DNA of 57,277 nucleotides from Bacteroidota bacterium (GTDB lineage Bacteria > Bacteroidota > Bacteroidia > Chitinophagales > BACL12): positions 1 through 57,277 of the forward strand of contig JAKQVC010000036.1 of NCBI GenBank assembly GCA_029571985.1. The letters are read 5' to 3'. A model generated the notes under the pieces. That model did no database searches. It was given only the letters and a program-made list of their open reading frames with translations, and had not been told where the DNA came from. The position numbers and the translations under genes were made by a program. The stretch's first letter is position 1, and every line of letters begins with the position of its first letter. Of the stretch, positions 1-5,440 are shown piece after piece.

Positions 1-501
1 ATTGCTTTCAAATTGAGTTCCTTATTTTTGCATTAACAGCTTACAACCAGAAACTCCAGCCGGAGAAACGCTGTGAATTGCTTTCAAATTGAGTTCCTTA
101 TTTTTGCATTAACAGCAATATAGACGTAAGTAACAAAGTCAACGGCGCTGTGAATTGCTTTCAAATTGAGTTCCTTATTTTTGCATTAACAGCTTTTAAC
201 TTAAAATACTCGTCTAATTCATCGCTGTGAATTGCTTTCAAATTGAGTTCCTTATTTTTGCATTAACAGCAAGGGACAGAACAACAACAGACAGAGAGAA
301 GCTGTGAATTGCTTTCAAATTGAGTTCCTTATTTTTGCATTAACAGCCTATACTTGTGACAGTTCCACCAGAACCAGGCTGTGAATTGCTTTCAAATTGA
401 GTTCCTTATTTTTGCATTAACAGCTTATGAAAGTTACGACCCAGATTTATACCTGCTGTGAATTGCTTTCAAATTGAGTTCCTTATTTTTGCATTAACAG
501 C
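1..501 (+). CRISPR. Type II-C CRISPR array, six full 47-bp repeats plus one partial
   Basis: Seen: full repeats at 70-116, 147-193, 224-270, 301-347, 378-424 and 455-501. The last 40 bases of another repeat lie at 1-40, so the array runs off the window. All visible repeats are identical. The six spacers are 29, 30, 30, 30, 30 and 30 nt. The repeat begins GCTGTGAATTGC and ends CATTAACAGC, so its ends form a GCTGT/ACAGC inverted pair. Repeat bases 4-24 pair with the anti-repeat at 5363-5384. This sets the crRNA strand as plus (spacer followed by repeat). Repeat bases 9-11 (TTG), an 18-bp gap and bases 30-37 (TATTTTTG) form a Bacteroidota promoter pointing into the following spacer. Length and layout fit Bacteroidota type II-C arrays. 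Spacer targets cannot be named without a search. Confidence 0.98.
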
Positions 502-537
502 AAACCCCTGTAAAAAGCCTTATTTTACAGGGGTTTT
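502..537 (+). terminator. Boundary hairpin between CRISPR array and cas2
   Basis: The perfect 14-bp stem pairs 502-515 (AAACCCCTGTAAAA) with 523-536, with a 7-nt loop. It starts on the base after the last repeat. Plus-strand transcripts from the array would end in its GGGGTTTT arm. Minus-strand cas mRNA would meet it 39 bp after the cas2 stop. It is therefore best read as a terminator between convergent array and cas transcripts. The minus-strand U tract is weak, so the plus direction is the better supported one. Confidence 0.7.
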
Positions 538-575: not shown

Positions 576-1818
<1,243 letters not shown>

Positions 1819-5324: not shown

Positions 5325-5355
5325 TTTGAAAAATACAAAAAAAACCATATTTTTA
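5325..5355 (+). promoter_or_regulatory. tracrRNA promoter (Bacteroidota sigma-ABfr type)
   Basis: TTTG at 5325-5328, a 19-bp spacer and TATTTTTA at 5348-5355 match the Bacteroidota -33 TTTG and -7 TAnnTTTG consensus with one mismatch (final G to A). The predicted start is about 5359-5362, one to a few bases before the anti-repeat. The element lies in the short gap upstream of the divergent cas9 start at 5312, so cas9 and tracrRNA initiation may influence each other. Confidence 0.7.
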
Positions 5356-5359
5356 CCTT

Positions 5360-5440
5360 CAACTCAATTTGAAGCAATTCACAATAAGGTTTTTTACCGT
5401 TGTGAAAACATTTTTAAGCGGCCTCCGGGTCGCTTTTTTA
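5360..5440 (+). ncRNA. tracrRNA
   Basis: The anti-repeat at 5363-5384 (CTCAATTTGAAGCAATTCAC and following) is complementary to repeat bases 3-24, about 21 bp with a single bulged U in the repeat. Next comes AATAAGG then TTTTTTACCGTT at 5383-5402. This matches the nexus pattern AAUAAGG...CCGUU of known tracrRNAs. A hairpin with AAGCG/CGCTT arms at 5416-5435, followed by a T6 run, ends the RNA. At about 80 nt it is short for a tracrRNA but has all essential parts: anti-repeat, nexus and terminal hairpin. It should pair with pre-crRNA and load Cas9. It is transcribed divergently from cas9. Confidence 0.93.
5416..5439 (+). terminator. tracrRNA intrinsic terminator
   Basis: The arms AAGCG(G)CC and GG(GT)CGCTT enclose a short TCCG loop, giving about 8 bp including one G-U pair. 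A run of six T follows at 5434-5439. This is a textbook rho-independent terminator and sets the 3' end of the tracrRNA. Confidence 0.9.

What the first reader, a model, noticed from the sequence alone, without database searches (positions are those of the whole stretch)
70..501. Every CRISPR repeat carries a complete promoter that reads into the next spacer
Seen: in each repeat TTG (bases 9-11), an 18-bp gap and TATTTTTG (bases 30-37) match the Bacteroidota -33/-7 promoter and have the same spacing as the HU and thioredoxin promoters here. The box ends 10 nt before the spacer, so transcription should begin at the repeat/spacer junction on the crRNA strand. Known: Neisseria and Campylobacter II-C repeats have embedded promoters built on a different sigma consensus. 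From memory, the Bacteroides fragilis II-C repeat also has TATCTTTG. Inference: Bacteroidota evolved the same leader-free, RNase III-optional crRNA supply using their own sigma factor.
Basis: partly seen in the sequence, partly recalled or inferred. Interest (0 to 1): 0.65.

Follow-up and report, generated by a model that had tools for sequence, protein, structure and literature searches.

The report
Promoter inside Bacteroidota CRISPR repeats
In this and many related bacteria each DNA repeat of the Cas9 immune memory array seems to hold its own start signal for making guide RNA, written in the unusual promoter code of the Bacteroidota; the principle is known from Neisseria and Campylobacter, but this version had only been guessed at from half of its sequence.

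Summary
Each 47-nt II-C repeat carries TTG (bases 9-11), N18 and TATTTTTG (30-37), the layout of the HU and thioredoxin-like promoters in the same window. The promoter reading is well supported by comparison, though no RNA data exist here. Among 88 distinct Bacteroidota II-C repeats, 26 carry exact TAnnTTTG on the crRNA strand and none on the other. 19 have the full TTG-N17-20-TAnnTTTG layout, against 0.5 expected. Betaproteobacterial II-C repeats (16) and other Bacteroidota CRISPR repeats (17) have none. In the same loci the tracrRNA promoters use the same box and spacing. Leader-distal 'extra' repeats lose their tracr-pairing half but usually keep the part from box to spacer. No external promoter is enriched at that end. 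In most relatives the box sits at 23-31 and the matching TTG is the 5' GTTG (2-4), not TTG 9-11; this window is a shifted register, and its own extra repeat has a damaged box. The motif is not universal (about 30% exact). Repeat-borne promoters were already proposed for Flavobacterium from the TTG alone. RNase III independence was not tested. Verdict: a new sigma-specific variant of a known kind.

The parts
1..40 (+). partial CRISPR repeat (bases 8-47), array continues off the contig start
70..116 (+). CRISPR repeat; TTG 78-80, box TATTTTTG 99-106, predicted start A111
   Evidence: start position inferred from the -12 to -5 rule of PMC9723704
147..193 (+). CRISPR repeat; TTG 155-157, box 176-183
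224..270 (+). CRISPR repeat; TTG 232-234, box 253-260
301..347 (+). CRISPR repeat; TTG 309-311, box 330-337
378..424 (+). CRISPR repeat; TTG 386-388, box 407-414
455..501 (+). last (leader-proximal, newest) CRISPR repeat; TTG 463-465, box 484-491
502..536 (+). 14-bp hairpin AAACCCCTGTAAAA...TTTTACAGGGGTTT directly after the last repeat; probable terminator of array transcripts, possibly also of the cas operon
   Evidence: similar hairpins in 46 of 84 relatives on this side against 9 of 60 on the other side
576..905 (-). cas2
   Evidence: TIGR01573
907..1818 (-). cas1, type II (NMENI subtype)
   Evidence: TIGR03639
1839..5312 (-). cas9
   Evidence: TIGR01865
5326..5355 (+). probable tracrRNA promoter: TTG 5326-5328, N19, TATTTTTA 5348-5355 (5 of 6 consensus letters)
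   Evidence: inferred
5357..5435 (+). tracrRNA: anti-repeat (about 5357-5385), conserved nexus-like segment, intrinsic terminator 5416-5435

Best explanation
Each repeat of this type II-C array carries a primary-sigma promoter of the Bacteroidota kind (TTG, 18 bp, TATTTTTG) on the crRNA strand. By the published -12 to -5 rule, transcription would start near repeat base 42, six bases before the spacer, so each spacer is transcribed from the repeat in front of it. Transcripts run towards the leader and cas2 and stop at the hairpin at 502-536. Their 3' part, the 5' half of the next repeat, pairs with a tracrRNA made from the same type of promoter. Most Bacteroidota II-C repeats that have the element carry it seven bases further upstream: GTTG at 1-4, N18-19, TATCTTTG at 23-31. 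Shown by sequence: motif, spacing, orientation, comparative enrichment, tracrRNA promoters, retention in extra repeats. Inferred: that polymerase starts there, the exact start, and the effect on crRNA supply.
For: Exact TAnnTTTG on the crRNA strand in 26 of 88 distinct repeats, 0 on the reverse strand; at 80% clustering 10/39 against 2.2 expected (dinucleotide shuffles, maximum 8 in 1000). Full TTG-N17-20-TAnnTTTG layout in 19/88 against 0.49 (5/39 clusters against 0.21, maximum 2 in 2000). Controls: 0/16 betaproteobacterial II-C repeats, of which 11 end in TAnAAT, and 0/17 repeats from loci found with type I Cas1 models in Bacteroidota. Promoters upstream of genes in the same loci show a TTG gap peak at 18-19. 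tracrRNA promoters: 30/59 exact boxes against 3.3 by shuffle, TTG gaps 18-20. In 34 of 40 long repeats the predicted anti-repeat pairing covers at most 2 nt of the box, so pairing does not explain its conservation. Between sister repeats the box diverges half as much as its flanks (0.117 against about 0.215, p = 0.02). Extra repeats lose the 5' half but keep the box in 26 of 30 altered long-repeat cases; one (L177) is altered up to the first base of TATCTTTG. Leader-distal flanks hold no excess of boxes (3/61 against 1.8), so no shared external promoter. The leader lies downstream of the crRNA strand, so it cannot be the crRNA promoter.
Against: No RNA data for this organism. Only about 30% of repeats carry the exact box; relaxed to 5 of 6 letters the excess is modest (71 against 54.6, maximum 67). 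The two 'n' positions are nearly always TC in the large family and are as conserved as the consensus letters, which TAnnTTTG alone does not require. TTG 2-4 and 9-11 lie in the tracr-pairing region and would be conserved anyway, so the -33 element has little evidential weight of its own; many extra repeats lose it. The oldest repeat of this very array has a 2-nt insertion that spoils the box (TATTTTTTG), and a 5-of-6 box with a TTG 18 nt upstream (L005:3759) lies just before the array. Repeats are related by descent, so counts are not independent. Box positions for the extra-repeat tally were partly assigned by hand.
Confidence: 0.8

Rival explanations
1. One promoter outside the array, on the leader-distal side (or read-through from an upstream gene), makes a long pre-crRNA that RNase III and tracrRNA cut; the box is incidental.
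For: In this genome a TTG-N18-TAACGTTG (5 of 6) lies 35 nt before the first repeat and a short ORF on the same strand ends about 70 nt before the array.
Against: Leader-distal flanks of 61 relatives show no box enrichment (3 against 1.8), while tracrRNA promoters found by the same method do (30/59 against 3.3). It does not explain the one-strand enrichment of the box or its retention in extra repeats.
Confidence: 0.12
2. The box is conserved for an RNA or DNA role other than transcription, such as tracrRNA pairing, Cas9 contact or Cas1-Cas2 recognition.
For: In several 36-nt repeats the anti-repeat pairs through the GATCTTTG box, and in L166 it appears to do so in a 47-nt repeat. The 'nn' letters are unusually constant.
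Against: In 34 of 40 long repeats predicted pairing covers at most 2 nt of the box. The extra repeat needs neither pairing nor integration, yet keeps the box. The letters and the spacing match the promoter used by tracrRNA and host genes in the same loci.
Confidence: 0.06
3. Chance: AT-rich repeats with a conserved ATTGC produce the motif by composition.
For: The box alone appears in 5% of shuffles of this repeat.
Against: Full layout 0.26% for this repeat, 19/88 against 0.49 across repeats, none on the reverse strand, none in controls.
Confidence: 0.02

Closest known systems
Type II-C arrays of Campylobacter jejuni and Neisseria meningitidis with a promoter in every repeat
   Same: Same cas9-cas1-cas2 order, array read towards the leader/cas2, promoter in the 3' part of each repeat, tracrRNA upstream of cas9. 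C. jejuni starts were mapped by dRNA-seq (PMC3656092).
   Different: They use a sigma-70 type extended -10 box at the very end of a 36-nt repeat and start inside the spacer. Here the box is the Bacteroidota TAnnTTTG, sits 10-17 nt before the end of a 46-47-nt repeat, and the start is predicted inside the repeat.
Flavobacterium columnare and F. psychrophilum II-C arrays (PMC8092290, PMC10309648)
   Same: Same phylum; a repeat-borne promoter was proposed from a TTG 33-35 bp before the spacer, with sparse RNA reads in the same direction.
   Different: Neither paper names a -7 box in the repeat or tests it by comparison. The short, tracr-conserved TTG was their only sequence evidence.
Riemerella anatipestifer CRISPR1 (PMC5006608)
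   Same: 47-nt II-C repeat, anti-repeat upstream of cas9, palindrome in the leader between cas2 and the array.
   Different: The authors reported no promoter in the repeats, after screening leaders with a Drosophila-trained predictor; the leader palindrome may be a terminator, as here.

Membership tests
Type II-C CRISPR-Cas | cas9, cas1 and cas2 only, no cas4 or csn2 | tested here: met
   the three genes follow one another and the array comes next to cas2; the next ORFs are unrelated.
Type II-C CRISPR-Cas | tracrRNA with anti-repeat pairing to the repeat 5' half, array convergent to the cas genes | tested here: met
   Anti-repeat at about 5357-5385 on +, cas genes on -, crRNA strand +.
II-C arrays with repeat-embedded promoters | promoter consensus of the host's primary sigma factor inside each repeat, reading into the spacer | tested here: met
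   Sequence level only.
II-C arrays with repeat-embedded promoters | oldest 'extra' repeat keeps promoter part while its tracr-pairing part decays | tested here: inconclusive
   Met in 26 of 30 altered long-repeat arrays, but in this array the oldest repeat has a 2-nt insertion in the box.
II-C arrays with repeat-embedded promoters | transcription starts mapped in or just after each repeat | not testable with these tools
   No RNA data available.
II-C arrays with repeat-embedded promoters | crRNA production independent of RNase III | not testable with these tools
   Needs mutants.

The most novel reading that the evidence does not exclude
Across Bacteroidota, II-C repeats have been rewritten to carry the phylum's own sigma-A promoter with a fixed TTG-box spacing, and lineages such as this one have moved the whole promoter by one step inside the repeat (TTG 2-4/box 23-31 to TTG 9-11/box 30-37) while keeping the 18-bp spacing. 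Repeat-borne promoters would then be a general trait of II-C systems whose box follows the host's sigma factor.
Probability: 0.55. Interest if true: 0.6.

Novelty: new variant of a known kind. Interest (0 to 1): 0.5.

Why it matters
It would extend repeat-borne promoters, shown experimentally in a few Proteobacteria and Campylobacterota, to a large phylum with a different promoter code, and give a sequence rule for predicting crRNA direction and 5' ends there. It would also explain why new spacers sit at the downstream end yet can be expressed at once, and it replaces a weak TTG-only argument in the literature with one that can be tested at single bases.

Tried and rejected
Leader promoter: rejected, because the leader side is downstream of the crRNA strand. 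Conserved external promoter at the leader-distal end: no enrichment. Anti-repeat pairing as the reason for box conservation: rejected for most long repeats, but it remains a confounder for 36-nt repeats with GATCTTTG. TTG 9-11 as a general -33 element: rejected. A gapped alignment of repeats blurred the box because its register varies. An Rfam search of the first 8 kb gave only chance hits. Paper searches for the box in Bacteroidota repeats found none; the library holds open-licence papers only.

Full report
What is there. The window begins inside a CRISPR array: one partial and six full 47-nt repeats with 30-nt spacers, followed by cas2, cas1 and cas9 on the minus strand and a tracrRNA on the plus strand upstream of cas9. 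Another contig of the same genome ends in 35 identical repeats and starts the array with a degenerate copy. The anti-repeat matches the 5' half of the plus-strand repeat, so plus is the crRNA strand. The degenerate, oldest repeat is at the upstream end and the cas2/leader side is downstream, which is the II-C arrangement in which the leader cannot drive crRNA synthesis.

The observation. Every repeat holds TTG (9-11), 18 bp and TATTTTTG (30-37). The same layout lies before HU (N18, TATTTTTG) and a thioredoxin-like gene (N18, TAACTTTG). Outside the array the full motif occurs five times in the window on both strands. A shuffled copy of the repeat has it 0.26% of the time.

Comparison. I collected 88 distinct Bacteroidota II-C repeats from two searches of about 395 genomes each, after setting aside a Betaproteobacteria-like one (L160). 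Exact TAnnTTTG is in 26 on the crRNA strand and 0 on the other; 10 of 39 clusters at 80% identity have it, against 2.2 in dinucleotide shuffles. The full layout is in 19 of 88 (0.49 expected) and 5 of 39 clusters (0.21 expected). None of 16 betaproteobacterial II-C repeats has it; 11 of those end in the sigma-70 type TAnAAT, though they are richer in G+C. None of 17 repeats from loci found with type I Cas1 models in Bacteroidota has it.

The register. In most relatives that have it, the box is TATCTTTG at 23-31, so TTG 9-11 is only 11-12 nt away and cannot be the -33 element. The TTG at the right distance is that of the 5' GTTG: gap 18 or 19. In the window the 5' end reads GCTG, the box is at 30-37, and TTG 9-11 gives 18. 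The window is therefore a shifted version rather than the rule; L127, with GATCTTTG at 31-38, may be another. Gap 18-19 is also the peak before genes in these loci, and 18-20 before tracrRNAs, where 30 of 59 have an exact box. That only half of these tracrRNA promoters match exactly shows that a missing exact box in a repeat does not exclude a promoter.

Function beyond sequence match. Predicted anti-repeat pairing covers at most 2 nt of the box in 34 of 40 long repeats. Sister repeats differ half as often in the box as beside it. Feussner et al. (PMC12080349) found that the oldest repeat of II-C arrays mutates mainly in its first 15 nt and suggested that it must stay a promoter for the first spacer. 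In Bacteroidota arrays here the oldest repeat often has its first 5-22 nt replaced while the rest, box to spacer, is identical; the box is intact in 26 of 30 altered long-repeat cases (some box positions assigned by hand). In L177 the change stops at the first base of TATCTTTG. In a betaproteobacterial array (L201) only the last nine bases with the -10 box remain. Leader-distal flanks show no box excess. On the leader side, strong hairpins are common (46 of 84 against 9 of 60 on the other side), including 502-536 here, as expected for termination of transcripts coming out of the array; they could also end the convergent cas operon.

Limits. There are no RNA data. The oldest repeat of this array has a damaged box, and a weak candidate promoter (TTG-N18-TAACGTTG) lies just outside it, so an external contribution cannot be excluded here. 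The TTG elements lie in sequence conserved for pairing and prove little alone. The 'nn' letters are more constant than the consensus needs. In 36-nt repeats the box is often absent or lies within the tracr pairing.

Literature. C. jejuni starts were mapped in II-C arrays (PMC3656092). Repeat-borne promoters were proposed in Flavobacterium from TTG alone (PMC8092290, PMC10309648), and none was seen in Riemerella (PMC5006608). The -7 box position (-12 to -5) is from PMC9723704. I found no paper that names TAnnTTTG in these repeats, within an open-licence library. Verdict: a new, sigma-specific variant of a known kind, interest 0.5.

Noticed in passing
spacers of the collected Bacteroidota II-C arrays: TAnnTTTG is rarer on the crRNA strand of 2219 spacers than expected (12 against 23.6 by shuffle; 23 on the reverse strand), as if spacers with their own promoter were disfavoured.
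   Followed up: partly
36-nt repeats, e.g. L051, L053, L058, L060, L065: Many 36-nt Bacteroidota II-C repeats lack the box but end in TAGATT, TACATT or GATATT, which could be the first six letters of TAnnTTTG at the repeat/spacer border, or a sigma-70 type -10.
   Followed up: no
L177 and L083, extra repeat: The oldest repeat has a short hairpin (e.g. TCCCGCCAGAGGCGGGA) in place of the bases just before the box.
   Followed up: no
L160 (G469:C28), identical in Cas1 to L178: A II-C locus in a Bacteroidia bin has Cas1 100% identical to Candidatus Desulfobacillus denitrificans and a Betaproteobacteria-type repeat; probably contamination of the bin.
   Followed up: partly
L166, tracrRNA: The anti-repeat contains AAAGATACTA and could pair with the TATCTTTG box, unlike most other long repeats.
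   Followed up: no
window 1 and L005 3794-6551: The array is split over two contig ends (C60 and C20); 41 full repeats are visible and the middle may be missing.
   Followed up: partly
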